From: Bugula neritina
Lineage: Eukaryota; Bryozoa; Gymnolaemata; Cheilostomatida; Bugulidae
Assembly: GCA_964035545.1 (NCBI GenBank)
Contig: OZ037769.1
Span: forward strand, 3,926,929 to 3,990,928
Length of the DNA: 64,000 bases
Direction of reading: 5' to 3'
Shown here: positions 7,101-62,690 of the stretch, piece by piece
Layout: every line of letters starts with the position of its first letter
Numbering within the stretch: position 1 is the first letter of the stretch
Made by a program: the position numbers and the translations under genes
Notes under the pieces: generated by a model
What the model was told of the DNA's origin: nothing
Database searches by the model: none
Seen by the model: only the letters and a program-made list of their open reading frames with translations

Positions 7101-10100
7101 TATACAGTTGCAGACTGCAACCAATGGTTTGATTCTCATCAATCAGGATTTATTCATCCACAAATAGGATAACAATCTTTTGAATTAAAACCCAAGTTAC
7201 TACTTTTTCTACAGGAACGACCCCTCTATATGTACACCAGAAATCTTCCACTTGGAGAGTTGTCACTTGGCTAGCCAACCAGAAGGAGATATCTGTGTTG
7301 ACAGCGAGACCTCTGTAGATATACCAGACTTAACGCTGCCGTGCTCCTGTGGTGCTGACTCAGAGTCACTTACGCTGTAAGCTGCTTCTGGTTTATTCTA
7401 GAATTTATACTATCAACTGTGAGACCTTGGCAAGATTGTTGTGTCACTCAACACATTGCATACTCTAGTATAATGTTCTTTATTTTGATGTGCCAGCTGC
7501 AAGTCTGTGTTGTGTTTACATGAGTGGAAAACCTAGCCTTGCTGCATAGGAGGGGTTCCTGTGGTGCCCCTGGGTTTGGCCATAGTGTCTAAACTTTAGA
7601 CCTAAGTGCACAATGATAGGTGCAAGAGGTACTGCCTTACCTTCTGAGTATGTGTGGCCACTACCACTCAATATACTACTACTACTCAGTACTCTACTAC
7701 TACTCAGTACACTACTACTACTCAGTACTCTACTACCACTCAATATACTACTACTACTCAGTACTCTACTACTACTCAGTACTCTACTACTACTCAGTAC
7801 TCTACTATTACTCAGTACTCTACTACTACTCAGTACTCTACTACTACTCAGTACACTACTACTACTCAGTACTCTACTACTACTCAGTACTCTACTACTA
7901 CTCAGTACTCTACTACTACTCAGTACACTACTACTACTCAGTACACTACTACTACTCAGTACTCTACTACTACTCAGTACTCTACTACTACTCAGTACAC
8001 TACTACTACTCAGTACTCTACTACTACTCAGTACTCTACTACTACTCAGTACTCTACTACTACTCAGTACACTACTACTACTCAGTACACTACTACTACT
8101 CAGTACTCTACTACTACTCAGTACACTACTACTACTCAGTACAGTACTACTACTCAGTACTCTACTACTACAGCAGTAGTTGTATGTACTGTGTTATTCA
8201 TTCATGGGAATAATTTTTTCCACTATGCAGTAGTGTAATGGCTGGGTGTGGCAAGTTATGTAATCACTGTGTTACATAACTTGTTATATAATAAGTACTG
8301 AAGCCCCTGGGTGAAGCCTCAACTCTTATATTTTCAGCAGACACTTCTTGGAAGAGTGAAATATTTTTCCATCGTTTCTTCACTTTGCTTACAAAATAAC
8401 AGAACAATTTTGGTCATTGGCAGAATATTAAAACCCACATCTGAAAAAGTGACGTTGAGAGTATGTTTGAGTTTAGTGGTCTGGGGTTACTAACCTCCCA
8501 ATCTAAATTAGCTAAACCACATAGGCTATTCAGATATTGAAGATATTTTCTAGCTAGCACAGCTGCTTTTCTCTCCCAAAGTAGTGCGAAATGCAGTTGA
8601 AAAGTTGAAGCAGGTTTTCAGTGTTTTCTCTGCTATTCATGAAATGTGTTCTTAATTTGAAATGCTTTTAATAGTTTCTAATGTAAATGACTCTTGTATA
8701 ATACTTATAGCCAAACTATTGTAAACATTTTCTTTGTATGAAAAACTGAATAAAATTAAGATTATTGTGAAAGTTTGGAAAGTTGAGAGACGGCACTTAT
8801 GCTGTCTAGACACTGTTAGGTAATCAAGTTAAGTTACATAATAATCGCAAAGGACACTTGAATAGGAAACATCTCATACCCCTGGATAAGCTGCACAGCT
8901 TGCTTTGCAATGCTGCATATGTGTTACATGACTCAATCAGCTCTACTACATGCTGCAACAAAAATATTTGTCATAGTCAGCTTCCAAAAATAGATAACTT
9001 ATTGTATTCAAAAAATGTTGCTCTAACTTGTGCTTTGCTTTCACTTTCTTTATTGAAGCTGCATTTATATTTATTGTCTTTCTGAACTTTTTCTATTTGT
9101 ATTTTGATTTTTAGATCACCCAACACTACAGTAACGTTTTTGAATACAAGGGAGACAAACCTCAATGCCAAGGATGACAATGGCTGTTGTAGTAAGCTGC
9201 GCACAGCTGAGACCACCCCTGAGAGGACTGCAGTTTATACTAACACACACCGTGTCAAGGACAATAACATATCTACCTCAATACCCGCTACTAAACCTGA
9301 CTCCATTACATTCCCCATCAGCTGCAGCCATTCTCGTACCAATTTCTACACTGCCAGCTCATTGGACGATCCAAGCATTGACTATAATCTAGACGACGGG
9401 CCAGTCAGCCAAAGTATAGAGAAGCATGTAAATTCCTTCTCATCACCTCGAGGTCATCGGAGGACTGGGTCAGCGGCATCAAGTATCTACAGCGTAGGGA
9501 TGACCTCCAACACAGAAGTATTTGTTGACTATTCATGTGGAATCTTTGCTGGATATGCCAACACGCTGAATCATGGGAACACAACTCATGGCAATATGAA
9601 TCATGGAAGCACGGCTCATGGAAATGATCTATTAAAGAAAACGATGGTGGCCAACCACAACAAAACTATTCAGAAAGACACGACAGACGGCGGTGAGCTA
9701 CCCGACAGCGCTGTCCTGCCAGACAGCGGTGAGGTTCGGAAGTGCGTCACTGTACGTCTGGAAGACGGCGTGAGTAAAGAGGAGCGACCTAGTTTGTTTC
9801 AGCCAATCAGTGGTAAGTGCAATGACCAGCCGTTGAAGCCAAGTCTATTCTATACGTACATGCCTACACAACTGTCTATCACTTACCATAGCTGGAAAAC
9901 TTGTCAACAGAATTCCGAGTAGAATTATTATTGGCAACCTGCACTTGTTTTTCCTTGATTTGTTTATTTAGTTCCAACATGTAAACATTTCGTCATGTCT
10001 ACCATGTAGACATGACGAAATGTGTAAATGACATTACTTGGTTGGTAGACCTTGTTGCCGAGGCCAACCAGAAAGAGCAGACGAAATCTGAGCCATACTA

Positions 10101-21100: not shown

Positions 21101-24064
21101 GGGTTAGTGAATATCAGTATCTAGTGTATACTCTCTGCTTGTACAGTGCGGGGCTGACTATGTAAAGTCTAACCAAACCAGTCCGGTTGGCCTTGACCTT
21201 GTGCCGGGAGAGAAATACGCTTCATTTGATGGAGATGCTGACAGGATAGTCTACTACTTTACAACCCAAGGTGAGAGTGATTTGACATTCTTTATTTTCC
21301 TAACTTGGCTAATGATGATTCTGGGAGAGGAAATTTTTCCTTAATTTAACTTAACTTAGTAAAATAGAATAGAAAATATAAAACATAATATAAAATCAAA
21401 CTTATGATTTTAGTTCTGAAATCTGTATTATTTACACAGAGCTATTTTTAGTGGGATACAATCACATGTCCGGTTTTCAGTTAGTCAAGCTAATGTGTTT
21501 TTTTTTCAAACATTTGTGATAAAATTTATTTTTAAAAGTCACAAGACTACTGAATAACTTCAAAGTGTTTAGTAAGAGATTTTGTCAGTTTTTTGTAAAA
21601 GTAATAAAATTTGTTGCATGTTACTAAAGACTTGTTGAGCACTTTATACTAAAAGATTTCCAATAAGCTGTGATAATGTATTTATATTCATACATTATTA
21701 TTTTCACCTTCAGAAGGAAAGTTTCAACTACTAGATGGGGATAAGATTGCCATATTGATAGCCTCATATCTGAAGCAGTTGTTGGTGGATTCAGGGCTAA
21801 GCAAGGAAATATCTCTGGGATTAGTGCAGACTGCCTATGCTAATGGAGCTTCTACTGAATACATATCAGATAAGCTGGTGAGTCTAACAGCAGTATTACA
21901 CTTATATTACAAGTTTATATTACACTTATGTTGCAAGTTTATGTTACTCTTATATTACAAGTTTATGTTACACTTATATTACAAGTTTATATTACACTTA
22001 TATTACAAGTTTATATTACACTTATATTACAAGTTTATATTACACTTATGTTACAAGTTTATATTACACTTATATTACAAGTTCATGTTATACTTATATT
22101 ACAAGTTTATATTACACTTATATTACAAGTTTATATTACACTTATGTTACAAGTTTATATTACACTTATATTACAAGTTTATATTACACTTATATTACAA
22201 GTTCATGTTATACTTATATTGCAAGTTTATATTACACTTATATTACAAGTTTATATTACACTTCTGTTACAAGTTTATATTACAAATTTATATTACACTT
22301 ATATTACAAGTTTATATTACACTTATATTACACCTATGTTATAGTAGTACGTCTTGAGTTATTCATCAAGTTGTATTAATTACCATAATATTTTCTGTAG
22401 CAATGGGTTCAACATGTTGTGTTTTCTACAGTCAGTACCAGTTACGTGTTCTAAAACTGGAGTAAAGTATCTGCATCACTGTGCACTGCAGTACGACATC
22501 GGAGTTTACTTTGAAGCTAATGGGCATGGCACGGTCATGTTCTCTGATAAAGCTGCCATGACTATTGACCTTGCTGCCAAAAGGTATGTCTTTATGGTTT
22601 AAACGTTTTCAGTGATGAGCTAGTTTTCAAAAATATGCCTGATGAAATTTTTTATGTATTTTTATATCGAAGGCGCTTCATAATTATATGGATAAACGTT
22701 AAGAATAACCCAGCGCGTAGTGTGCGCAGTAAATAGTTGCCGTGTAACTGTTTTTTATACAAAAGTTGAAATGTCTTATTGAATGTGATGTTGATTTTGA
22801 TGCTTTCCAAACTTTTCTTTGCTGATAAAGCAAATTGTTCTATGAACTCTATTAGGAATGAAATGTCTTTAACAGCCATATGTTTGAGAAATATTATGTT
22901 AGCCTAAAAATATTCAATTTTCTGTCTAGAAATTTACAAAAAGAGTACTTTTCACATACATAATTTTTTATTACAAATCACTCCAAATTAATTCTCATTA
23001 TTAGCAACTGTAAATAACCACTAAACTAACAGGTCTATGAACTTCTTATTCCTTCGGCATTCTAAAGCTAATCTCTCTGTTGTAGTGCTGACTCCAACAC
23101 GGCTGCCGGAACAGCTGCTCTCAAGCTATCCGCGCTGACACAACTCATAATGCAGATAGTAGGGGATGCCATATCCGATCTAGTCTTTGTCGAAGCTATA
23201 CTTACTGACCTTAACATGACCTTGAGCCAATGGAATGACCAATACACTGATTTACCGAATGTCCTTTGTAAAGTTTCTGTGAGTTGATGGATTTTTAGAA
23301 TTGAGCTTTGAAATTACCATTTAAATCCCCAACAAATTTCTCGGGTGATTATCATTGAGGACGAGATTAATAATTTGCATTTATTTTCACGTCTTTGTAA
23401 GGAAATCAGTTGAATGTGTTGAGGAACTGATGTTTTCTAACTACTAGATTTGGATTAAAGTATTTCTGTAACCTTATGAACTTTATATAGGTAGCTGATA
23501 GGCAGGTAATAAAGACTACTAATGCTGAACGAACAGCCACTAGTCCTATTGGTTTACAGGCAGCAATTGATGAAGTCGTGTTGAAAGTCAGCAAAGGAAG
23601 GTCGTTTGTTCGGTAGGTCTGCCTAGTGACATCATAGTTTCTAAGTGTGAAGTTGGGTGAAGGTTATAATATTGTTTAATTTCAAGCAGTTTAGTCATCA
23701 ATAGATTTCAAATGTGGTGCCTGGGTGTTGAAATAATTTATTATATTGTCACTCTTTTTATATTAAAATTCTTGCACTGCAGCATTTTGGTAACAGATAA
23801 GTTGGTTTTCGAGATTTTTTAATTTTCAAGTAACTGTATAATGTCAGACTATCCATTAACTGATCAGAATGGCAAATGGGATCTAGTATTGTGTACTCAT
23901 ATTCTGCTTTTCTATGCACACTTTATATCAGGCCATCGGGAACAGAAGATGTTGTTAGAGTCTATGCGGAAGCTTCAACTGTAGAAGAGGTGAAGCAACT
24001 GTCGTTGGGAGTTGCTTGCCTTGTATATGATATGTGTGGTGGTGTTGGAGAAAGACCAGTGTGA
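18119..24064 (+). CDS. PGM3: Phosphoacetylglucosamine mutase
   Basis: Thirteen exons join in frame: 18119-18216, 18370-18440, 18681-18810, 19164-19259, 19792-19865, 20408-20562, 20753-20875, 21147-21270, 21714-21877, 22432-22583, 23086-23278, 23491-23612 and 23932-24064. They encode 544 aa, against 542 in human. The enzyme interconverts GlcNAc-6-phosphate and GlcNAc-1-phosphate in cytosolic UDP-GlcNAc synthesis. The phosphoserine loop TASHNP is at 64-69 (Ser66). The metal loop DGDADR is at about 277-282, the sugar-binding motif EANGHG is in exon 10, and the phosphate-binding loop [15 protein letters not shown] starts at 501. All key residues are intact. An AG stands five bases before the ATG, so a 5' UTR intron is likely. 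A candidate poly(A) signal is at 24518-24523. Confidence 0.97.
20170..20362 (+). mobile_element. tRNA-derived SINE copy 3 (PGM3 intron 5)
   Basis: Head GAGCAGCCGTGATTTAGGGG, then the family core (CATAATTGCTCCTGTG, CCCTTAGCCCGCTTAG, CCCTTTCCACCAGGG, TCTCACAGGGATAGT). The A box has diverged. The copy ends about 45 nt before the acceptor of PGM3 exon 6. Confidence 0.8.
21890..22345. repeat. 24-bp AT-rich minisatellite at the PGM3 exon 9 donor
   Basis: About 18 copies of a 24-bp unit (ACACTTATATTACAAGTTTATATT and variants) start 13 nt after the exon 9 donor. Because the unit is a multiple of three, two frames stay open, one of them continuous with exon 9. Reading into it would add octapeptide repeats rich in Leu, Tyr and Lys to PGM3, so correct splicing of the exon 9 donor matters. 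Confidence 0.9.
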
Positions 24065-33200: not shown

Positions 33201-35362
33201 TTCATATTTGATTTTTTTTCTACTGTTGTGTGGATTTTTTTGTAGAGTTGAGAGAGATAATTCGAGAACACACATTCGTCGGGTGTGTTAACAAGTCTTT
33301 CAGTCTGATACAACATCAGACTAAACTCTATCTTATCAATAACAAGAATCTCACGTGAGTATATCTACACTGTGTCTGTTTCCTTTATAGTCTTTACTTC
33401 CAACTGCAGGTTTTACGGTCTTTAATTTGGTTGCGTGGACGTGATGCTTTTTACATTACGCCTGCACAACCAAATTTACTAAAACATTAGGATAAACATA
33501 GAAAATCATTCAATATTAAAAAACACTTGCTTATTCAGATGTATATATGTTAATATTTTATCAGTTTATTGCAAGAAGCTATGTACATTAGCTGCTAAAC
33601 TGTGAAAAACAGCTAAAAACTAGAAATATTAGTGTGTACTAAGTAAAGTAAAATAGCCCACATATACTTTTTCAAGTTTAATTTGAAAATGTTTTTAGCT
33701 AGTTGAAATTTTTTATTGTTGCAACCGAAATGCCTGCTCTTTCTTTGTGCAGCAGCTACTGTCTTAGAAGACACTGTCGACTAACAGCTTGGTATGCTAT
33801 CCTCTCTAATGTGATTTGTAGGCAGGAGTTATTCTATCAAATTATGCTGTATCAGTTTGGAAATTTCGGCATGCTCAAACTGTCGGTGAGTATTTAAACA
33901 ACTCATGTGAACACAAATACAATCATACTTCTGACATGACAAACCATGATACGCGTCTGCAATGTTTCATCTGTGTAGTAGATTAATTATAATTTATTAT
34001 AAAAGTTTATCTGCCTTTTTATTAGTATTATATTGTATTATGTGTGTATGTCTCTGTGCTGCAAGTGTGGATTTATATTTTATATCATTGTTTAAGCTGT
34101 GTTTTTGTTTTGCTTTTTGGAGTTGCCTCATCATCAGAACACTCTACAGCTGCTACTGTGTTCTTTTAAAGGAGAAAACAAGCATACAGGAATTGGCTCT
34201 CTTAGCCCTAGATCTACCGGAATGTGGATGGACTCCGGAAGACGGGGATAAAGTCGATATTGCCAAGTACGCATGCCAATTTCTTATATCAAAGGCCGAG
34301 ATGTTGTACGAATATTTCAGTATAGAAATTGATAAGGTGGGTTGCATGTGGTGGTTGTGTGCAACAGTTGCTCAAATTGCTTTTATAATGTTTCACTTGT
34401 TTCATTTATTTTTGTAAAAATTACAAAATATAATGTTATAGTCAGTTATGAAACCTTTTTGTTGATTTTTTTTTATTCTAAAGCGTTTCAGAAATAATTT
34501 CTGCTGTACAGATATCATTAGTCAAATATTTTTGCAGTAATATATTCACAGATGTGGGCGCATTGATTAAATATTTTTTTGCAATAAGCACATTATTAAT
34601 CAATTTCACTAATTGTTGGCTACCACAAAATATATTGTACAAAAGTAGCTGAGAGCACAACTCCTTTTTCAGGATGGAAATCTGTGCTCTTTGCCCTTGC
34701 TGCTGGAAGGTTATATCCCAGAGCTGGAAAGAATACCCTTGTATCTAGTCAGATTAGTCACTGAAGTTGAATGGGATGAAGAACAGCGATGCTTTCATGA
34801 CATATGTAAGGAAACTAGTCTATTTTACGCTCTACAGAAGGAAATCCTTCCTGTCCCTTCTTCTCAACAGGTATGTAATATGTATGTTCTAGCTTTTAGG
34901 GCGTAGTTGGTGATTGTCTTTCCACTGGGAAAATTGATCAACTGTAATTAGCTCACAATATGAACACTAGTCACAATATAATATAGATTGTAAGCTCACC
35001 AAAAAGAGTAACTTAGTAGTTTGAACACTGCTGCATTGTGCTTCGTTTTTCAGTTTTCTAGCTAGTTTTTAGTGAATAGTAGTGCATAGTAGAGTATGTT
35101 CTTTGTTAAAAATTGTTTTTATTTTCCTTGATTTAGCTAACTATACAGTCACTGCCTTCTAAGTTGTATCTATTTGTTTTATTTTTTTTACTGTTTTTAT
35201 TAGTCAGAAGAGGAAGAATTGAAATGGAAAAATATAACTGAACATGTAATATGTCCAGCTATGAGAATGACTTTACTACCTTCTCTTCAAAGAGCGGAAG
35301 ATGCTACATTTCTTGAAATTGCTAATTTGCCAAATCTTTACAAAGTATTTGAAAGGTGCTAA
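27274..35362 (+). CDS. MLH1: DNA mismatch repair protein MLH1
   Basis: Sixteen exons join in frame: 27274-27380, 28077-28167, 28593-28765, 29029-29101, 29415-29506, 29772-29903, 30430-30542, 30782-30875, 31595-31748, 31996-32252, 32832-32941, 33246-33354, 33822-33885, 34172-34336, 34673-34870 and 35204-35362. They encode 696 aa, against 756 in human; the shortfall is in the disordered linker (exons 10-11). MLH1 is the MutL subunit that pairs with PMS2/PMS1 in nuclear mismatch repair and in meiotic crossing over. The GHKL ATPase is complete: KEMIEN with Glu31 and Asn35, DNGTGI from Asp60, [11 protein letters not shown] in exon 3. The C-terminal domain ends in the invariant YKVFERC tail that contributes to the PMS2 endonuclease site. 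Exon 10 has an 18-nt tandem duplication (QKEASG twice). A poly(A) signal is at 35475-35480. Confidence 0.98.
27381..27760. repeat. Low-complexity AGTAAGACTAAGAG block in MLH1 intron 1
   Basis: Starting at the exon 1 donor, the intron has runs of AAGACTAAGAGTAAGAGTAA, then AATAATATTAAT and TAATAGTAATAGTAAT words. It continues the texture found upstream of the gene. Confidence 0.65.
28388..28446 (+). mobile_element. SINE core fragment in MLH1 intron 2
   Basis: The fragment keeps only the core of the SINE family (ACCTTTCCATCAGAGG, TCTCACAAGGGATGGC, then CTATAAACCTGCATGAG). The tRNA head is absent. Confidence 0.55.
30876..31215. repeat. (GTGA)n array starting at the MLH1 exon 8 donor
   Basis: A 340-nt GTGAGTGA tract with interruptions begins at the first base of intron 8. 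The true donor (GTGAGT at 30876) is therefore followed by dozens of identical GTGAGT hexamers. Confidence 0.95.
33418..33620 (-). mobile_element. About 200-bp interspersed element with terminal hairpin, copy 2
   Basis: Inverted second copy of the element at 12886-13085, in MLH1 intron 12. Its hairpin end is better preserved here: ATTTGGTTGCGTGGACGTGATG pairs imperfectly with the reverse complement of CATTACGCCTGCACAACCAA around a short loop. Confidence 0.6.
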
Positions 35363-51034: not shown

Positions 51035-51040
51035 TTTATT
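51035..51040 (-). terminator. Poly(A) signal of the repeat polyprotein gene
   Basis: TTTATT on the plus strand is AATAAA on the coding strand, 70 nt past the stop codon at 51112-51110. Confidence 0.6.
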
Positions 51041-51109: not shown

Positions 51110-51246
51110 TTACCCAAAAAACTTGTCCCAGACTTTTTTGGCTCCAGCAGCCAGTGCCTGACTACCTGCAGCTACAGCAGCACGGCAAGCAGAACTGCCA
51201 AGGCATGCTTTGAATGCAGCTGTTCCTGCAGCTATTGCTGTAGTAA
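51110..51246 (-). CDS. Terminal module exon of the polyprotein
   Basis: Precursor residues 563-607. It keeps the Thr-Thr-Ala opening and the Cys-x5-Cys pair (CLGSSAC), then AKKVWDKFFG and TAA. The final Gly sits where the other modules have Gly-Lys-Arg, so no protease step is needed to expose an amidation donor. The sequence is otherwise diverged from the array, and the preceding intron is short (313 nt). Confidence 0.85.
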
Positions 51247-54200
51247 CTGTAAATACAATGACATCAACTTATTAATCTGTGGTAAAGCAATTACTTACAT
51301 TACACCATAATAAACCACTGTAATGAGTAATATTATACTTGTTAGTACTTTCTATTTATTAAACAATCTTTTTTTTCTATTTTTGTTCGCATTTCGAATC
51401 TTTTTACCTCTACTAATTTTAAAATAGCAAGCTTTAAATAAGCTTTATAGAACTTACTAAAATGTTAAATATTTATATATATTCACTCTTTTAAAACAAA
51501 AGTGAGAGTGTCTTTGTTACCTGATGCACATAATGCTCAAAATAAAAATATTTACACACCAACAGCTCTCTTTCCCCAGAGTTTGCCCCAAAGTTTCTTA
51601 ACTCCACCAACAACTGCATTAACACCATCTTTCACAATTTCTTGGCACTTTCCACTGGCAGCACATGCTTTAGCTGCAGCTGTTCCTAGAGCCACTGCTG
51701 TAGTAACTGTAAATATCATGACATGAACATTTTTAATATTTGATACAAGAAAAGTTACTTACATTACTGCATAATGGCCCACTGTAATGTCCAGTATAAA
51801 ACTTATTTTTATTCCTTTTATAGTTTAATACGTGTTTGTAACTCCACTAATCATAAATTCTATGAAAATTCAAGAAAAGCTCATAACTTTTTCATCATTT
51901 TTAAAATTTTGAAACACGATTGTTTTAAAATAAAATTGCATTTTTACCAAGCTTTTTGAATCTTAAGGTTTGTGAAAAAGAGCAATGAAATACTGATATT
52001 TTGTAAAAAGAACAATTTGAAGGTTTTACAATATAAACATATATAAACAGGACTGTTGTTTTCTCCTGTAAAATTGTCATGATTAAAACCACTTTTTCCA
52101 AGTCACCTGAGAGCAAATGAACTTCAGTTAACATTTTCTTACAACACATTTAGTGATCATGCCTATTCAACACTCAGCTGAGTCATCTAGTTTCACATGA
52201 AAATCTTTTTAATACTATAGCGAAGAACAAAAAAAACGAGAAAAAATATTTTTAGTTGTTTTCCAACAAGCCTGTTCCACAATGACCCCCTTCAACAACT
52301 TGGTTTAACATCTATAGCTACAACATGAAGAAAAACAGTGCTGACACTGTTTTCACTCCACCTAATGCTACTGTATTTTTGATAATCTTTCAGAAACATG
52401 TTTGTATAGTTAGAACAGTGTAATACTAATAAATATAAAATTTAATGGTTTTTTTATGAATTTTAAAGTTGCTAATACAATAAAGCTGCAATGAAGGTAT
52501 GCAATAACTGAAAAATATGTTCCTGTGATATTATCACCAACATGATATTCTTATACTTTAAGGCCAAGTGACCTGAGAACAGATCAAGCAGTTTTGAGAC
52601 ATAAGAATAGATAATTCCACTGATTATTTAATACTATTATATAGGCAATGATATTCAGCTTAATTAATTCCACATAATTAAATACTCTACATCTAATTGT
52701 GTGACAAAGACGGTTCAATACTAATAAATGTAAACTATATGCACACTCTCTATATAATGAGCTAGAATAATTCTATATTCTCTCAGTTAACAATTTTGTA
52801 TACTCAAAGTAGTTTACATACCAACAGCTCTCTTTCCTCCAAACCTGCTGGTAAGTTTATTCCACAAGAACTTGGCTCCTTCAGCAATTTTCTTAGCACC
52901 TGATTTCACAGCCTTAACACACTCACTACTAGCAGCACATGCTTTAGCTGCAGCTGTTCCTAGAGTTACTGCTGTAGTAACTGTAAATATCATGACATCA
53001 AGTCATTACCATTTAGTAAAACAACTGCTTACATTACAGCAAAATGATTTACTGTAATAACCAATTTAGTACTTGGTGCTAGTCTTTGCTTATATAATAA
53101 GGCTTTTCACATATCAACAGGTTGTTTTCCAACAAGCCTGCTCCACAATGACACCCCCCCCCCCCCCAACAACTTTGTTCAACATCTATAGCTACAGCGT
53201 GAAGAAAAACAGTGCTGACAGCACATGTTTTTACTCCACCTAATGCTACTGTATCTATGATAATCTTTCAGAAACATGTTTGTATAGTTAGAACAGTGTA
53301 ATACTAATAAATATATAATTTTATGTTTTTTTATGAATTTTAAAGTTGCTAATACAATAAAGCTGCAATGAAGGCATGCAATAACTGAAAAATATGTTCC
53401 TGTGATATTATCACCAACATGATATTCTTATACTTTAAGGCCAAGTGACCTGAGAACAGATCAAGCAGTTTTGAGACGTAAGAATAGATAATTCCACTGA
53501 TTATTTAATACTATTATATAGGCAATGATATTCAGCTTAATTAATTCCACATAATTAAATACTCTACATCTATTTGTGTGACAAAGACGGTTCAATACTA
53601 ATAAATGTAAACTATATGCACACTCTCTATATAATGAGCTAGAATAATTCTATATTCTCTCAGTTAGCAATTTTGTATACTCAAAGTAGTTTACATACCA
53701 ACAGCTCTCTTTCCTCCAAACCTGCTGGTAAGTTTATTCCACAAGAACTTGGCTCCTTCAGCAATTTTCTTAGCACCTGATTTCACAGCCTTAACACACT
53801 CACTACTAGCAGCACATGCTTTAGCTGCAGCTGTTCCTAGAGTTACTGCTGTAGTAACTGTAAATATCATCACATGAGCATTTTTAATATTTGATACAAG
53901 AAAAAGTTACTTACATTACTGCATAATGGCTTAGTCTAATGTCCAGTATAAAACTTATTTTTATTCTTTATTAAGTTTAATGCCTTTTTGCAACTCCACT
54001 AATTATAAATGCTATGAAAATTCAAGAAAAGCTCATAACTTTTTCGTCATTTTTAAAACTTCCAGAAGCACAATTGTTTTAAAATAAAATTGTATTTTTT
54101 TACCAAGCTTTTTAAATCTTAAAGTTTGTGAATAAAAGGCAATGAAATACTGTTAAATTGTAGAAAGAACAGTTTGAAGGTTTTACAATATAAACAGGAC

Positions 54201-57200
54201 TGTTGTTTTCTTCTGTAAAACTGTCATTAAAACCACTTTTTTCAAGTCACCTGAGAGCAAACCAACTTTAGCTAACATTTTCTTACAACACATTAAATGA
54301 TCATGCCTATTCAACACTCAGCTGAGTCATCTAGTTTCACATAAAAAGTGATTTTAATACTATAGCAAAGAACATTAAAAACGAGAAAAAATATTTTTAG
54401 TTGTTTTCCAACAAGCCTGTTCCACAATGACGCCCTTCAACAACTTGGTTTAACATCTATAGCTACAACATGAAGAAAAACAGTGCTGACACTGTTTTCA
54501 CTCCACCTAATGCTACTGTATCTATGATAATCTTTCAGAAACATGTTTGTATAGTTAGAACAGTGTAATACTAATAAATATATAATTTTATGTTTTTTTA
54601 TGAATTTTAAAGTTGCTAATACAATAAAGCTGCAATGAAGGCATGCAATAACTGAAAAATATGTTCCTGTGATATTATCACCAACATGATATTCTTATAC
54701 TTTAAGGCCAAGTGACCTGAGAACAGATCAAGCAGTTTTGAGACGTTTACGAATAGATAATTCCACTGATTATTTAATACTATTATATAGGCAATGATAT
54801 TCAGCTTAATTAATTCCACATAATTAAATACTCTACATCTAATTGTGTGACAAAGACGGTTCAATACTAATAAATGTAAACTATATGCACACTCTCTATA
54901 TAATGAGCTAGAATAATTCTATATTCTCTCAGTTAGCAATTTTGTATACTCAAAGTAGTTTACATACCAACAGCTCTCTTTCCCCAGAGTTTGCCCCAAA
55001 TTTTTTTAACTCCATCAACAGCTGCATTAACACCATCTTTCACAATTTCTTGGCACTTCCCACTGGCAGCACATGCTTTAGCTGCAGCTGTTCCTAGAGC
55101 CACTGCTGTAGTAACTGTAAATATCATGACATGAACATTTTTAATATTTGATACAAGAAAAGTTACTTACATTACTGCATAATGGCCCACTGTAATGTCC
55201 AGTATAAAACTTATTTTTATTCCTTTTATAGTTTAATGCGTGTTTGTAACTCCACTAATCATAAATGCTATGAAAATTCAAGAAAAGCTCATAACTTTTT
55301 CATCATTTTTATAACTTTGAAACACAATTGTTTTAAAATAAGATTGCATTTTTTACCAAGCTTTTTGAATCTTAAGGTATGTGAAAAAGAGCAATGAAAT
55401 ACTGATATTTTGTAAAAAGAACAATTTGAAGGTTTTACAATATAAACATATATAAACAGGACTGTTGTTTTCTCCTGTAAAATTGTCATGATTAAAACCA
55501 CTTTTTCCAAGTCACCTGAGAGCAAATGAACTTCAGTTAACATTTTCTTACAACACATTTAGTGATCATGCCTATTCAACACTCAGCTGAGTCATCTAGT
55601 TTCACATGAAAATCTTTTTAATACTATAGCGAAGAACAAAAAAAACGAGAAAAAATATTTTTAGTTGTTTTCCAACAAGCCTGTTCCACAATGACCCCCT
55701 TCAACAACTTGGTTTAACATCTATAGCTACAACATGAAGAAAAACAGTGCTGACACTGTTTTCACTCCACCTAATGCTACTGTATTTTTGATAATCTTTC
55801 AGAAACATGTTTGTATAGTTAGAACAGTGTAATACTAATAAATATAAAATTTAATGGTTTTTTATGAATTTTAAAGTTGCTAATACAATAAAGCTGCAAT
55901 GAAGGTATGCAATAACTGAAAAATATGTTCCTGTGATATTATCACCAACATGATATTCTTATACTTTAAGGCCAAGTGACCTGAGAACAGATCAAGCAGT
56001 TTTGAGACGTAAGAATAGATAATTCCACTGATTATTTAATACTATTATATAGGCAATGATATTCAGCTTAATTAATTCCACATAATTAAATACTCTACAT
56101 CTATTTGTGTGACAAAGACGGTTCAATACTAATAAATGTAAACTATATGCACACTCTCTATATAATGAGCTAGAATAATTCTATATTCTCTCAGTTAGCA
56201 ATTTTGTATACTCAAAGTAGTTTACATACCAACAGCTCTCTTTCCTCCAAACCTGCTGGTAAGTTTATTCCACAAGAACTTGGCTCCTTCAGCAATTTTC
56301 TTAGCACCTGATTTCACAGCCTTAACACACTCACTACTAGCAGCACATGCTTTAGCTGCAGCTGTTCCTAGAGTTACTGCTGTAGTAACTGTAAATATCA
56401 TCACATGAGCATTTTTAATATTTGATACAAGAAAAAGTTACTTACATTACTGCATAATGGCTTAGTCTAATGTCCAGTATAAAACTTATTTTTATTCTTT
56501 ATTAAGTTTAATGCCTTTTTGCAACTCCACTAATTATAAAGGCTATGAAAATTCAAGAAAAGCTCATAACTTTTTCGTCATTTTTAAAACTTCCAGAAGC
56601 ACAATTGTTTTAAAATAAAATTGTATTTTTTTACCAAGCTTTTTAAATCTTAAAGTTTGTGAATAAAAGGCAATGAAATACTGATAAATTGTAGAAAGAA
56701 CAGTTTGAAGGTTTTACAATATAAACAGGACTGTTGTTTTCTTCTGTAAAACTGTCATTAAAACCACTTTTTTCAAGTCACCTGAGAGCAAACCAACTTT
56801 AGCTAACATTTTCTTACAACACATTAAATGATCCTGCCTATTCAACACTCAGCTGAGTCATCTAGTTTCACATAAAAAGTGATTTTAATACTATAGCAAA
56901 GAACATTAAAAACGAGAAAAAATATTTTTAGTTGTTTTCCAACAAGCCTGTTCCACAATGACGCCCTTCAACAACTTGGTTTAACATCTATAGCTACAAC
57001 ATGAAGAAAAACAGTGCTGACACTGTTTTCACTCCACCTAATGCTACTGTATCTATGATAATCTTTCAGAAACGCATGTTTGTATAGTTAGAACAGTGTA
57101 ATACTAATAAATATATAATTTAATGTTTTTTTATGAATTTTAAAGTTGCTAATACAATAAAGCTGCAATGAAGGCATGCAATAACTGAAAAATATGTTCC

Positions 57201-60200
57201 TGTGATATTATCACCAACATGATATTCTTATACTTTAAGGCCAAGTGACCTGAGAACATATCAAGCAGTTTTGAGACGTAAGAATAGATAATTCCACTGA
57301 TTATTTAATACTATTATATAGGCAATGATATTCAGCTTAATTAATTCCACATAATTAAATACTCTACATCTAATTGTGTGACAAAGACGGTTCAATACTA
57401 ATAAATGTAAACTATATGCACACTCTCTATATAATGAGCTAGAATAATTCTATATTCTCTCAGTTAGCAATTTTGTATACTCAAAGTAGTTTACATACCA
57501 ACAGCTCTCTTTCCTCCAAACCTGCTGGTAAGTTTATTCCACAAGAACTTGGCTCCTTCAGCAATTTTCTTAGCACCTGATTTCACAGCCTTAACACACT
57601 CACTACTAGCAGCACATGCTGTGGCTGCAGCTTTTCCTAGAGTTATTGCTGTAGTAACTGTAAACATCATGACATCAAGTCATTACCATTTAGTAAAACA
57701 ACTGCTTACATTACAGCAAAATGACTTACTGTAATAACCAATTTAGTACTTGGTGCTAGTCTTTGCTTATATAATAAGGCTTTTCACATATCAACAGGTT
57801 GTTTTCCAACAAGCCTGCTCTACAATGACACCCCCCCCCCCCCCCAACAACTTTGTTCAACATCTATAGCTACAGCGTGAAGAAAAACAGTGCTGACAGC
57901 ACATGTTTTTACTCCACCTAATGCTACTGTATCTATGATAATCTTTCAGAAACATGTTTGTATAGTTAGAACAGTGTAATACTAATAAATATATAATTTT
58001 ATGTTTTTTTATGAATTTTAAAGTTGCTAATACAATAAAGCTGCAATGAAGGTATGCAATAACTGAAAAATATGTTCCTGTGATATTATCACCAACATGA
58101 TATTCTTATACTTTAAGGCCAAGTGACCTGAGAACATATCAAGCAATTTTGAGACGTAAGAATAGATAATTCCACTGATTATTTAATACTATTATATAGG
58201 CAATGATATTCAGCTTAATTAATTCCACATAATTAAATACTCTACATCTAATTGTGTGACAAAGAAGGTTCAATACTAATAAATGTAAACTATATGCACA
58301 CTCTCTATATAATGAGCTAGAATAATTCTATATTCTCTCAGTTAGCAATTTTGTATACTCAAAGTAGTTTACATACCAACAGCTCTCTTTCCTCCAAACC
58401 TGCTGGTAAGTTTATTCCACAAGAACTTGGCTCCTTCAGCAATTTTCTTAGCACCTGATTTCACAGCCTTAACACACTCACTACTAGCAGCACATGCTTT
58501 AGCTGCAGCTGTTCCTAGAGTTACTGCTGTAGTAACTGTAAATATCATCACATGAGCATTTTTAACATTTGATACAAGAAAAAGTTACTTACATTACTGC
58601 ATAATGGCTTAGTCTAATGTCCAGTATAAAACTTATTTTTATTCTTTATTAAGTTTAATGCCTTTTTGCAACTCCACTAATTATAAATGCTATGAAAATT
58701 CAAGAAAAGCTCATAACTTTTTCGTCATTTTTAAAACTTCCAGAAGCACAATTGTTTTAAAAAAAAATTGTATTTTTTTACCAAGCTTTTTAAATCTTAA
58801 AGTTTGTGAATAAAAGGCAATGAAATACTGATAAATTGTAGAAAGAACAGTTTGAAGGTTTTACAATATAAACAGGACTGTTGTTTTCTTCTGTAAAACT
58901 GTCATTAAAACCACTTTTTTCAAGTCACCTGAGAGCAAACCAACTTTAGCTAACATTTTCTTACAACACATTTAGTGATCATGCCTATTCAACACTCAGC
59001 TGAGTCATCTAGTTTCACATAAAAAGTGATTTCAATACTATAGCAAAGAACATTAAAAACGAGAAAAAATATTTTTAGTTCTTTTCCAACAAGCCTGTTC
59101 CACAATGACCCCCTTCAACAACTTGGTTTAACATCTATAGCTACAACATGAAGAAAAACAGTGCTGACACTGTTTTCACCCCACCTAATGCTACTGTATC
59201 TATGATAATCTTTCAGAAACATGTTTGTATAGTTAGAACAGTGTAATACTAATAAATATATAATTTCATGTTTTTTTTATGAATTTTAAAGTTGCTAATA
59301 CAATAAAGCTGCAATGAAGGTATGCAATAACTGAAAAATATGTTCCTGTGATATTATCACCAACATGATATTCTTATACTTTAAGGCCAAGTGACCTGAG
59401 AACATATCAAGCAGTTTTGAGACGCAAGAATAGATAATTCCACTGATTATTTAATACTATTGTATAGGCAATGATATTCAGCTTAATTAATTCCACATAA
59501 TTAAATACTCTACATCTAATTGTGTGACAAAGAAGGTTCAATACTAATAAATGTAAACTATATGCACACTCTCTATATAATGAGCTAGAATAATTCTATA
59601 TTCTCTCAGTTAGCAATTTTGTATACTCAAAGTAGTTTACATACCAACAGCTCTCTTTCCTCCAAACCTGCTGGTAAGTTTATTCCACAAGAACTTGGCT
59701 CCTTCAGCAATTTTCTTAGCACCTGATTTCACAGCCTTAACACACTCACTACTAGCAGCACATGCTTTAGCTGCAGCTGTTCCTAGAGTTACTGCTGTAG
59801 TAACTGTAAATATCATGACATCAAGTCATTACCATTTAGTAAAACAACTGCTTACATTACAGCAAAATGACTTACTGTAATAACCAATTTAGTACTTGGT
59901 GCTAGTCGTTGCTTATATAATAAGGCTTTTCACATATCAACAGGTTGTTTTCCAACAAGCCTGCTCTACAATGACACCCCCCCCCCCCCCCCCCCCCAAC
60001 AACTTTGTTCAACATCTATAGCTACAGCGTGAAGAAAAACAGTGCTGACAGCACATGTTTTTACTCCACCTAATGCTACTGTATCTATGATAATCTTTCA
60101 GAAACATGTTTGTATAGTTAGAACAGTGTAATACTGATAAATATAAAATTTAACGTTTTTTATGAATTTTAAAGTTGATAACACAATAAAACTGCTAAAT

Positions 60201-62281
60201 GCAATGAAGGCATGTATTAACTGAAAATTCTTTTCCTTGTAAAATTACCACTAACATAACATGTTCAAACTTTAGGCCAAGCCACCTAAGAACAGCTAGA
60301 TCAATTTTTGAAAACCTTTTACTTGAATTTTTTCTATAACCACTATATTTTAATTTTTCTTATCACATGTCGTTTCACATGAAAGCAGTTTTGAGATGAG
60401 AGCAGATAATTGCACCAAAATTAAAATGCTACTAGTATATGTGGTTGAGGTCTTTTTGACAAAAAGCACGTTTCAGCTAGGAAATTAATAAAATGCTGAA
60501 ATGAACTCGCTTTGCTTATATTGGTGAACTGATAGAGTATATTATTTAATATCTCAAATATGTTTATGAAAAAATATACTGATAAATATTAAACTTTCAG
60601 TTTGCTATTTGTTGGTGATAGTTTTTCTCAACCAGCTCTCGTATACTCAAAGTAGTTTACATACCAACAGCTCTTTTTCCCCAGAGTTTGCCCCAAATTT
60701 TTTTGGCTCCATCAGCAACTGCTGTAGCAGCTCCAGATAAGACACTTTTGCAAGTTGTGCTACCAAGACATGCCTTTCCTGCAGCTAATGCTGTTCCAAT
60801 AACATCTACTCTTTTGTCTACGAAACAAGAAGCTTTCTAATTTAGCAGTCATATGCAGGTTACATGTATTGAGTAGCAGACTAGTAACAACAAACTTTAA
60901 AACTAAATACTAATAAGTCTGCATTTTTGATTATTCTTACGGTATAAAGTTTTGCATGCCTGCAGTTTTTTCAATAGACTTTTTACAATCTTTGTTTTGC
61001 AGCCACTATGAATGGTCAAACTTCAAAAATGTTGTGCAGTTGATTTTGAAAATGTTTAAGTGCTTAAAAAGTAGTTTTTAATAAAAGGCATTTTTTTGCA
61101 TTTCAATTAGTTGCTGACTTTAGTCTTACCAGTGGCAGCTTCAAAAACTTTGTTGACAACTCCATGCACAGCCTCTTTGCATTGATCATTCTGAGCACAG
61201 AATTTTACAGCATTTGAGAGAACCTGCTTCACCTTGTCAAACTCTTCATCAACAAAGTCTAGTTTGTCAGCTGTAACAATAGATTCGATTTATAAGGCGA
61301 CAGTTAATCATGAGATGACAACTCTGAACTCAAATATAGTTATATAAGGAAGAATCTGAAAGTCTTTCTATGTGAACTGATAGTTGTAATTGCTTAGGCA
61401 GGTAAAACTAACGTATATTCTGTAAATCTCATAGGTACTTACCTACAAGTTCTTTAGCATCAGCCAGACCATTTCTAGTAGACTCTGAAATATTGATATA
61501 GTTTTGTTATTAGAATGCTACAACTGTGTATACATACAGCTCATATATATCTTATTATATGCAATATATTATATTCAAAGTTGATAGACCAACAAATGTG
61601 CATATAAACATGAAAAATTAGTTGGAAAGATACAAGAATTATTTGGTAATTGCATAGATCAACAAATGTGCATATAAACATGAAAAATTAGTTGGAAAGA
61701 TACAAGAATTATTTGGTAATTGCATAGATCAAAATTCAAAAATGTATGACTCACTATTGACCTAAATTTGTTGTTTATAGTTAAAATTTTAGCCATTGTT
61801 TGGTTATGTAGGTTTATGAATTTTAAAAATGCTATGACACTTGGAAATTGTGAGAAATCATTTTTCTGGCATGTGCAAAATTGAATGTTCAACATTTGTG
61901 CAGTTTAATGGCAAAATTGAATAAAAACCTGTGTTCTATACTACTATAAATGAAGCAAAAAGCGATGTTCTCACAAAAATTTCCAACCAAATTTTACCAC
62001 ATCTTTTAGCAAAATAAAAAGCCTGGGTGATATCTCAATTTCCTCACTGTTGCAACTAACTGAAAGCTTTATTGTAACTAAGTGTTGCATTTCTATGGCA
62101 TAATACAAATTCAAACTGAGTATATTGAACTTAACAACTTGTCATTAATCAAGCTATTATTTAACATTATTTACAAACCTTTGAAGATGTCTAGAAGAGA
62201 ATGGACTCCTTCTTCAACATGTTGGAAAACATTTGCGTTGGCGACGGCAACAGCCAGGAAAAGGATTGCAAGCACTTTCAT
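51110..62281 (-). CDS. Secreted ten-module cationic peptide polyprotein, family not recognised
   Basis: Thirteen minus-strand coding exons join in frame: 62281-62179, 61484-61443, 61270-61130, 60817-60665, 59803-59645, 58535-58377, 57657-57499, 56388-56230, 55114-54968, 53857-53699, 52980-52822, 51706-51560 and 51246-51110 (TAA). The product is 607 aa. Residues 1-16 form a signal peptide (MKVLAILFLAVAVANA). Residues 17-95 form an acidic pro-region. Residues 96-607 are ten modules of 45-53 aa. Every module, and pro-region exon 3, has Cys-x5-Cys followed by a Lys/Ala-rich amphipathic stretch. Nine modules end in Gly-Lys-Arg; the last ends in Phe-Phe-Gly-stop. An Asp-Lys-Arg site opens the first. 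Dibasic cleavage and amidation would release ten peptides of net charge about +3 to +6. I infer an antimicrobial or host-defence precursor; a neuropeptide-like or structural role remains possible. All internal introns are phase 1, so any exon subset keeps frame. Confidence 0.8.
51560..60817 (-). repeat. Tandem exon-intron repeat array of the polyprotein gene
   Basis: Nine module exons are separated by near-duplicate introns. The exons are of two kinds. The 159-nt F-type ends in SRFGGKR and sits at 52822, 53699, 56230, 57499, 58377 and 59645. The W-type ends in GKLWGKR and sits at 51560 and 54968 (147 nt) and 60665 (153 nt). Introns fall in three size classes: about 718 nt (52981-53698, 57658-58376), about 1110 nt (53858-54967, 56389-57498, 58536-59644) and 1115 nt (51707-52821, 55115-56229), plus one of 861 nt (59804-60664). 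Introns of one class look almost identical by eye. Poly(C) tracts mark the 718- and 861-nt introns. The block 51560-52821 is repeated as 54968-56229. Confidence 0.92.
57499..57657 (-). CDS. Divergent F-type module exon of the polyprotein
   Basis: Precursor residues 253-305. It differs from the other five F-type exons, which read identical to each other, by Val to Ile, Thr to Lys and Lys to Thr in the segment before the first Cys. The Lys/Thr swap leaves the charge unchanged. The rest of the module, including the dibasic site, is unchanged. Confidence 0.85.
61130..61484 (-). CDS. Acidic pro-region exons 2 and 3 of the polyprotein
   Basis: Exon 61484-61443 encodes 13 full codons and exon 61270-61130 encodes 46. 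Exon 3 reads DEEFDKVKQVLSNAVKF, then CAQNDQC, and counts to about net -3. It is built like a module (Cys-x5-Cys then a helix) but without the dibasic end. It is probably the ancestral or inactive module, and may neutralise the cationic repeats before processing. Confidence 0.75.
61590..61729. repeat. 70-bp perfect tandem duplication
   Basis: Two consecutive 70-bp copies (AACAAATGTGCATATAAACA at 61591 and again at 61661) in intron 1 of the polyprotein gene. They appear identical, so the duplication is recent. Confidence 0.92.
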
Positions 62282-62570
62282 CTTCAGTTCACTACAAAAT
62301 CATATATCAGTTCACATATTATATTATATATTATATTATACTACGGACTACAGCATGCTGGATAAGTGTAATATTACCAACACAAACTAAGATTTTATCA
62401 TGGTTACTAATTATCATTTTAACATGATGTCCGTTGCAGCAACACTTAGTGAAAATGTTTAAAACATTGAACAAGATGCAAGCTAAACATGAATTGAAGA
62501 AATTGTTTACTGCAAAATACTAATTTTATAAACAAGTGCTAAAAGTGAGTATTAGAGAAGAATATATTAC

Positions 62571-62612: not shown

Positions 62613-62638
62613 CTGATGAGTTATCGGAAAGCACCAAC

Positions 62639-62690
62639 TTTTATACCCTTGGAGGCACCATGTGTTGGTTCCCATCGCCACACTGACGTA
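62639..62690 (-). promoter_or_regulatory. TATA box and CRE-like site of the polyprotein gene
   Basis: On the coding strand TATAAAA lies at 62645-62639 (GGGTATAAAAGTTGG context). A CRE-like TGACGTA (plus-strand orientation) lies at 62684-62690. A strong TATA box fits an inducible or highly expressed secreted product. I see no convincing NF-kappaB site. Confidence 0.6.

What the first reader, a model, noticed from the sequence alone, without database searches (positions are those of the whole stretch)
51110..62281. Ten-module secreted polyprotein built by exon duplication, each module ending in an amidation signal
Seen: signal peptide, acidic pro-region, ten one-exon modules with Cys-x5-Cys, nine Gly-Lys-Arg ends and a tenth ending in Gly-stop. 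Known: Gly before a dibasic site, or before the C terminus, is the substrate of peptidyl-glycine amidating enzymes, and acidic pro-regions commonly accompany cationic host-defence peptides. Inference: one precursor releases ten disulfide-bonded, amidated, amphipathic cationic peptides. I recognise no described family with this module.
Basis: partly seen in the sequence, partly recalled or inferred. Interest (0 to 1): 0.92.

Follow-up and report, generated by a model that had tools for sequence, protein, structure and literature searches.

The report
Bryozoan ten-peptide secreted precursor gene
A sea-mat animal (bryozoan) carries a gene that appears to make one long secreted protein which is cut into ten short helical peptides, each capped by an amide, most likely for defence against microbes; a second bryozoan has a protein of the same plan, and no described family that we searched matches it.

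Summary
On the minus strand (ATG 62281, stop 51110-51112), 13 GT-AG exons, all joined in phase 1, give an uninterrupted 607-aa precursor: signal peptide, acidic pro-region, ten one-exon modules with Cys-x5-Cys, nine ending Gly-Lys-Arg and the tenth Gly-stop. Contig lengths identify Bugula neritina. Whole-genome searches matched only this locus. The one protein relative found is an uncharacterized 679-aa protein of the bryozoan Watersipora subatra with the same plan (E 1.8e-76). New points: exon 3, inside the pro-region, has its own Cys-x5-Cys and looks like a diverged, anionic "module zero". Six modules would leave Gly-amide, three Trp-amide, one Phe-amide. Two exons look chimeric. Amidating-enzyme and convertase-type sequences are present. 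Host-defence function is likely but inferred: Watersipora modules are only weakly cationic (+2 to +4), no kappa-B site was found, and no RNA, mass-spectrometry or activity data were available. Tandem-exon or tandem-peptide defence precursors are known (Xenopus magainin/caerulein; Drosophila Baramicin), so the gene design is not new; the peptide family appears to be.

The parts
62638..62645 (-). candidate TATA box (TATAAAAG)
   Evidence: 12 such matches in the window against 9.56 expected, so weak
62292..62570 (-). candidate 5'-UTR intron (GT...AG) between a non-coding first exon and the exon with the ATG
   Evidence: read by eye; no RNA
62179..62281 (-). Exon 1: signal peptide MKVLAILFLAVAVANA and start of the pro-region
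   Evidence: 56% identical to Watersipora residues 1-36, E 0.0445 on its own
61443..61484 (-). Exon 2: pro-region
61130..61270 (-). Exon 3: acidic pro-region with C-x5-C, a probable diverged 'module zero'
60665..60817 (-). Exon 4: KR cleavage site, then module 1 (ends LW-GKR)
59645..59803 (-). Exon 5: module 2 (ends SRFG-GKR)
58377..58535 (-). Exon 6: module 3 (SRFG-GKR)
57499..57657 (-). Exon 7: module 4 (SRFG-GKR, 3 amino-acid changes against module 2)
56230..56388 (-). Exon 8: module 5 (SRFG-GKR)
54968..55114 (-). Exon 9: module 6 (LW-GKR); 5' part like exon 5, 3' part like exon 4, middle unlike both
53699..53857 (-). Exon 10: module 7 (SRFG-GKR)
52822..52980 (-). Exon 11: module 8 (SRFG-GKR)
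51560..51706 (-). Exon 12: module 9 (LW-GKR), same type as exon 9 (96.6% identical)
51110..51246 (-). Exon 13: module 10, ends KFFG then TAA stop
51035..51040 (-). candidate polyadenylation signal AATAAA about 70 bases after the stop
   Evidence: read by eye

Best explanation
One gene makes a secreted multi-peptide precursor. The signal peptide sends it into the secretory pathway. A proprotein convertase cuts after each KR, a carboxypeptidase trims KR, and peptidylglycine amidating enzyme turns the exposed Gly into an amide. The result is ten peptides of 43-50 residues (six distinct sequences) with one short C-x5-C loop, a hydrophobic Ala-rich first half and an amphipathic second half with a bulky aromatic residue at or near its end. 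The anionic 'module zero' probably keeps the cargo soluble or silent until cleavage. The peptides most likely bind and disturb microbial membranes as host-defence peptides; repeated exons raise the yield per transcript and supply three end variants. Shown: gene structure, open frame, conservation of the plan in a second bryozoan, enzyme-type sequences in the genome. Inferred: splicing, cleavage, amidation, disulfide, membrane activity and defence role.
For: Open 13-exon frame, all phase-1 introns. Same plan in W. subatra: 44% identity over signal, pro-region and first module; 7 of its 10 KR-delimited pieces end GKR. A Bugula module profile scores 34.5-49.0 bits on 7 of 7 Watersipora modules tested (two longer ones of nine were left out), against shuffle maxima of 13.6, or 21.6 with Cys fixed. 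Second halves amphipathic in 4 of 6 tested sequences at p<0.03 by shuffling. Mature charge +4 to +7 in Bugula, acidic pro-regions of -5 and -9. Two exons, at C2:31613662 and C2:1685732, match peptidylglycine amidating monooxygenase structures; 12 P-domain matches of the convertase type. AlphaFold model of a module: helices 2-15 and 18-44 with the bend at the Cys loop, but mean pLDDT only 66.5.
Against: Watersipora peptides are only +2 to +4. Two of six second-half amphipathicity tests were not significant at the fixed 100-degree angle (module 1 p 0.052, module 10 p 0.29), nor was the Watersipora first half (p 0.27). No kappa-B-like site in the window (0 found, 0.97 expected). No expression, mass-spectrometry or activity data. 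2 of 9 Watersipora modules are not GKR-ended in the deposited model. A KK pair inside each of the ten modules could give other cuts.
Confidence: 0.6

Rival explanations
1. Neuropeptide or peptide-hormone precursor: many near-identical copies between dibasic sites, amidated, acting on a receptor.
For: Multi-copy GKR-flanked precursors are typical of neuropeptides (established knowledge, recalled). The genome has amidating-enzyme and convertase-type sequences.
Against: The C-terminal end, usually the receptor-reading part, varies (G-amide, W-amide, F-amide), while the body of the module and its Cys loop are conserved. Peptides are 43-50 aa. By eye it is not among the peptides of Table 2 of the B. 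neritina larval survey of 11 precursors (PMC4990251, section 13); that survey mined a larval transcriptome by BLAST, so absence is weak. No Pfam family matched the 11 module sequences at E<=1 except one weak Con-6 hit.
Confidence: 0.15
2. Anti-predator or anti-fouling secretion: membrane-active peptides aimed at eukaryotic cells (predators, epibionts, competitors) rather than at microbes.
For: Same anatomy as the favoured reading; the amphibian skin arsenal that includes tandem-exon genes holds both hormone-like anti-predator and antimicrobial peptides (PMC3731216, abstract start and passages).
Against: Nothing here separates it from antimicrobial defence.
Confidence: 0.15
3. Secreted repeat protein that is not cleaved (structural, adhesive or lipid-binding), the KR sites being unused.
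For: No cleavage data exist; modules are Ala-rich and modelled as helical, at low confidence.
Against: GKR is kept at module ends in two bryozoan species (9 of 10 and 7 of 9 modules) whose modules are only 34-53% identical in pairs, and the last Bugula module keeps the terminal Gly without needing KR.
Confidence: 0.08

Closest known systems
Uncharacterized protein of Watersipora subatra (P0001, 679 aa)
   Same: Signal peptide, acidic pro-region with C-x5-C, tandem C-x5-C modules, eleven such loops as in Bugula, W-x-K-[LI]-F-GKR ends. A homologue by the sequence tests run.
   Different: Modules weakly cationic, 46-57 aa counted with GKR where GKR-ended; a second copy of the pro-region inside the protein (residues about 403-469); a low-complexity STYED tail from residue 598. 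The deposited model may fuse neighbouring copies or read through an intron; not testable here.
Xenopus laevis magainin and caerulein precursor genes
   Different: Vertebrate peptides, unrelated and shorter as far as I recall; no sequence comparison with them was run.
Drosophila Baramicin A (and apidaecin) multi-peptide precursors
   Same: Tandem peptides between furin sites, likened to a 'protein operon'; [quoted passage not shown]
   Different: Furin RXRR sites; the main text has no word beginning 'amidat'. That the Baramicin peptides lack such a Cys loop and one-exon repeats is recalled, not tested.
Calcitonin-type peptides and the frog 'Rana box'
   Same: A C-x5-C heptapeptide ring; calcitonins are also amidated (recalled).
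   Different: Here the first Cys is residue 14 or 17 of the mature peptide, and there is no C-terminal Pro-amide; no Pfam calcitonin match.

Membership tests
Family shared with W. subatra P0001 | Homologous signal, pro-region and module sequence | tested here: met
   E 1.8e-76; 44% identity over 144 aa; 7 of 7 modules tested 34.5-49.0 bits against shuffle maxima 13.6 and 21.6
Family shared with W. subatra P0001 | One module per phase-1 exon | not testable with these tools
   met in Bugula; the Watersipora gene structure was not seen
Multi-peptide defence-peptide precursors (kind: magainin/caerulein, Baramicin) | Secreted precursor with tandem peptides between convertase sites | tested here: met
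   at sequence level only
Multi-peptide defence-peptide precursors (kind: magainin/caerulein, Baramicin) | Demonstrated antimicrobial activity or immune induction | not testable with these tools
   no RNA or assay; kappa-B consensus absent from the window
Amidated peptides | Gly before dibasic site or before the C-terminus, with amidating enzyme in the genome | tested here: met
   10 of 10 modules; PHM-type exons at C2:31613662 and C2:1685732; the lyase half (PAL) was not looked for
Calcitonin family | N-terminal Cys ring and calcitonin domain | tested here: not met
   ring mid-peptide; no Pfam calcitonin match for any of 11 modules
Known B. neritina neuropeptide precursors | Listed in the 2016 in-silico survey | tested here: not met
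   by eye, none of the Table 2 peptides resembles the module

The most novel reading that the evidence does not exclude
The first gene-encoded defence-peptide family of bryozoans: amidated, disulfide-looped helix-turn-helix peptides released ten at a time from one gene, with exon cassettes exchanged and homogenised by recombination, and an anionic homologue of the peptide recruited as its own pro-region inhibitor. Because every internal exon is phase 1-1, exon skipping could also vary the number and mix of peptides without breaking the frame.
Probability: 0.45. Interest if true: 0.72.

Novelty: new variant of a known kind. Interest (0 to 1): 0.6.

Why it matters
The paper listings seen (7 of 7 papers; 20 of 31; 1 of 1; 10 of 12) showed no title or listed abstract start that reports a bryozoan gene-encoded antimicrobial peptide; the papers themselves were not read and most subscription journals are not held. 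B. neritina is best known for bryostatins made by a bacterial symbiont (recalled), so a host-made peptide arsenal would change what is tested in its defence and in control of its symbionts. The gene is also a clear case of exon-cassette amplification with homogenised copies, and possibly of a peptide module turned into its own pro-region. Precise masses are given for a direct peptidomics test.

Tried and rejected
Pfam on the whole precursor gave nine families. Cas_TM1802 scored 25.3 bits, just above its curated cut-off of 25.1; the other eight were below theirs. I reject all nine as repeat or composition artefacts: only DUF1664 had a stretch that passed on its own, and single modules gave no Pfam match at E<=1 except one weak Con-6 (1 of 11 members, E 0.017). 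The exon-3 piece had three hits at E 0.11-0.14, all below cut-off. PDB searches with one module and with six modules gave only marginal hits, E 0.17-1.4 and 1-2.1. NCBIfam gave two meaningless weak hits. In the first protein search only the 7998 candidates sharing most words were scored. Two further protein searches, with a two-species profile of the first ~145 residues (1438 candidates) and with ~300-residue composites (8000 candidates scored), found nothing at E<=1, so not even a B. neritina gene model turned up; length limits and candidate caps mean relatives could be missed. A scan of bacterial and archaeal genome contigs, using one degenerate pattern around the first Cys, found 375 stretches and no relative by tblastn at E<=1e-3, so a bacterial or symbiont origin has no support. 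Calcitonin and known neuropeptides were rejected as above. A fold search was not run because the model confidence (66.5) was too low. Kappa-B sites: none. TATA: not above chance in the window. The first hmmsearch control script gave no scores; it was corrected and repeated. In one search the profile of Watersipora modules did NOT pick out the pro-regions (44 and 114 of 1000 shuffles scored as high as the Bugula and Watersipora pro-region; 88 and 201 with Cys fixed). With the Bugula profile and Cys positions fixed, 7 of 1000 shuffles matched the Watersipora pro-region score. With the combined profile 1 and 6 of 1000 did. So 'module zero' is well supported for Bugula and only moderately across species. 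A literature search for single precursors with multiple amidated AMP copies and exons listed no paper.

Full report
WHERE. The window is C5:3926929-3990928 of a 215.85-Mb, 295-contig genome. Contigs C1 and C5 are 35,640,107 and 17,720,077 bases, equal to chromosomes 1 (35.64 Mb) and 5 (17.72 Mb) of Bugula neritina tzBugNeri2.1, total 216.00 Mb in 320 scaffolds (PMC11480708, passages). The contig count differs (295 against 320), but the lengths fit closely and the only protein relative is also bryozoan, so I take the species as B. neritina. A planned COX1 check did not complete.

THE GENE. It lies on the minus strand. Thirteen exons from ATG 62281 to the TAA ending at 51110 join into 607 codons without an internal stop; all 12 introns start GT, end AG and lie in phase 1. 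A candidate TATA box, 5'-UTR intron and AATAAA signal frame it, by eye; the TATA motif is not above chance in the window. Splicing itself is not shown.

THE PRECURSOR. It has a 16-residue signal peptide (hydrophobic core, cleavage after ANA by inspection), an acidic pro-region (net -5 over 82 residues), a KR site, then ten modules. Predicted mature peptides are 43, 50 or 46 residues, net charge +4 to +7 with the free N-terminus counted. Ends: six Gly-amide (modules 2, 3, 4, 5, 7, 8), three Trp-amide (1, 6, 9), one Phe-amide (10). There are six distinct module sequences.

A RELATIVE. A search of 5.77 billion proteins, with 7998 candidates scored, returned one hit at E<=10: an uncharacterized Watersipora subatra protein of 679 aa, E 1.8e-76. 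Its signal, pro-region and first module align to ours at 44%. Cut at KR, it gives 10 pieces, all with C-x5-C, 7 ending GKR. Of the three others one is the signal plus pro-region, one a module fused to a second pro-region, one the last module running into a STYED repeat tail. Bugula and Watersipora modules are 34-53% identical in pairs (10 against 7; the two long Watersipora pieces were left out). Eight columns are invariant over 11 module sequences (6 Bugula, 5 Watersipora): three Ala, both Cys, and Lys, Trp, Lys near the end (A12 A13 A16 C17 C23 K39 W42 K44). Within each species some copies are identical, so each lineage probably amplified or homogenised its own set. The Watersipora gene was not seen at the DNA level.

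MODULE ZERO. Exon 3 reads FCAQNDQCKEAV around its own C-x5-C. A profile-profile comparison with the modules gives P 1.5e-4 but a probability of only 51. A profile of the ten Bugula modules scores it 15.5 bits; 0 of 1000 shuffles reach that, also with the cysteines fixed (maxima 6.9 and 13.8). The Watersipora pro-region scores 7.1 with that profile (0 of 1000, and 7 of 1000 with cysteines fixed). The combined profile gives 0 and 1 of 1000 for Bugula, 0 and 6 of 1000 for Watersipora. The profile of Watersipora modules detects neither pro-region (44 and 114 of 1000 shuffles as high). I read exon 3 as a diverged, anionic module: good support in Bugula, moderate across species.

HOW IT GREW. Exons 5, 6, 8, 10 and 11 are identical over 159 bases. 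For exons 5 and 6 the next 450 bases downstream are also 96-100% identical in 50-base steps before falling to 34-63%, while the 400 bases upstream are only 31-74% identical; exons 8 and 11 likewise share exon and downstream intron but not the upstream flank (30-72%). Exon 7 differs from exon 5 at 4 bases, 3 of them changing an amino acid. Introns fall into matching sets (5/7/9, 6/10, 8/11 at 98.6-99.5%), which indicates duplication of multi-exon blocks. Exons 8 and 9 are 68% identical with gaps counted (73.5% without), yet their flanks are 84-100% identical. Exon 9 matches exon 5 at 54 of its first 60 bases and exon 4 at 41 of its last 44, where exon 5 matches 28 of 44; its middle (24 of 43 against exon 5) resembles neither closely. 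Exon 12 shows the same (54 of 60; 39 of 44 with exon 4). So exons 9 and 12 look like recombinant cassettes inside shared introns, with a further diverged middle.

THE MACHINERY. The genome holds 20 matches to PF03712 and 23 to PF01082, the copper type II monooxygenase domains. Eight of the PF03712 loci were translated. Two, C2:31613662 and C2:1685732, match peptidylglycine amidating monooxygenase structures (best E 5.7e-15 and 1.1e-9; all 13 listed hits of each search are that enzyme). The other six look by eye more like dopamine-beta-hydroxylase kin (recalled motifs, not tested). There are 12 P-domain (PF01483) matches, the domain of proprotein convertases, though not of these alone; one of 14 control genomes also rings. 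The lyase half of the amidating enzyme and carboxypeptidases were not looked for.

SHAPE AND CHEMISTRY. AlphaFold on six module sequences gives helices 2-15 and 18-44 bending at the Cys loop, with low confidence (pLDDT 66.5, pTM 0.32). Nine segments were tested for amphipathicity by shuffling. The part after the loop passes in the SRFG type (p 0.0096), the LW type (0.0066) and both Watersipora types (0.024, 0.0002), is borderline in module 1 (0.052) and fails in module 10 (0.29). The exon-3 piece gives 0.044, the Bugula first half 0.009, the Watersipora first half 0.27.

FUNCTION. Secretion, multi-peptide release and amidation follow from sequence with good confidence. A membrane-active host-defence role is the best fit: amphipathic, mostly cationic in Bugula, amidated, anionic pro-part, variable ends, copy turnover. 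It is weakened by the low charge of the Watersipora peptides (+2 in five of seven, +4 in two) and the lack of any kappa-B consensus. The rivals are neuropeptide (0.15), anti-predator or anti-fouling peptide (0.15) and uncleaved repeat protein (0.08).

KNOWN KIND. X. laevis magainin and caerulein genes have multiple tandem-repeated peptide exons with quasi-zero divergence (PMC3731216, passages). Baramicin A is a tandem precursor cut at furin sites, and its authors name apidaecin as the first described case (PMC8423362, passages). So the gene plan is a known kind; the peptide family matched nothing convincing in the libraries searched (Pfam, NCBIfam, PDB). The 2016 survey of B. neritina neuropeptides does not list it, by eye (PMC4990251, outline, passages and section 13). 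Literature listings for bryozoan, Bugula or Watersipora antimicrobial peptides (7 of 7 papers listed; 20 of 31; 1 of 1; 10 of 12) showed none by title or abstract start; I did not read those papers, and most subscription journals are not held.

UNIQUENESS. Whole-genome protein searches, exon by exon, matched only this gene: 10 of 10 matches with a Bugula module and 6 of 6 with the 147-residue Watersipora N-terminal piece (E 1.2e-6 to 0.08) lie in its exons (positions checked). More distant paralogues could be missed, since this genome could not be searched with a profile.

Noticed in passing
window 61584-61732: A 70-base unit repeated 2.1 times, 98% matches, in intron 1 of the gene.
   Followed up: no
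window about 53146, 57832 and 59978: Runs of C in introns 10, 6 and 4, a likely mark of a shared intron segment in three copies (read by eye).
   Followed up: no
window 33962-34417 (+) and 21755-22357 (+): ORFs matching the MLH1 C-terminus and phosphoacetylglucosamine mutase domain III: ordinary conserved neighbours; five other ORFs scanned had no Pfam match.
   Followed up: partly
window 7613-8238: Long simple-repeat stretch open in three forward frames.
   Followed up: no
G000 C2:31613662 and C2:31645544: A PHM (amidating enzyme) exon and a P-domain exon of convertase type lie about 32 kb apart on the same chromosome.
   Followed up: no
G000 C3:32.01-32.02 Mb, C4:5.71-5.73 Mb, C9:5.51-5.54 Mb: Clusters of copper type II monooxygenase exons; those translated (C3, C4) look by eye more like dopamine-beta-hydroxylase kin than PHM, suggesting a local expansion.
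   Followed up: partly
P0001 (W. subatra), residues about 403-469 and from 598: A second copy of the acidic pro-region inside the protein, fused to the preceding module, and a STYED repeat tail: either real duplication or a fused gene model.
   Followed up: partly
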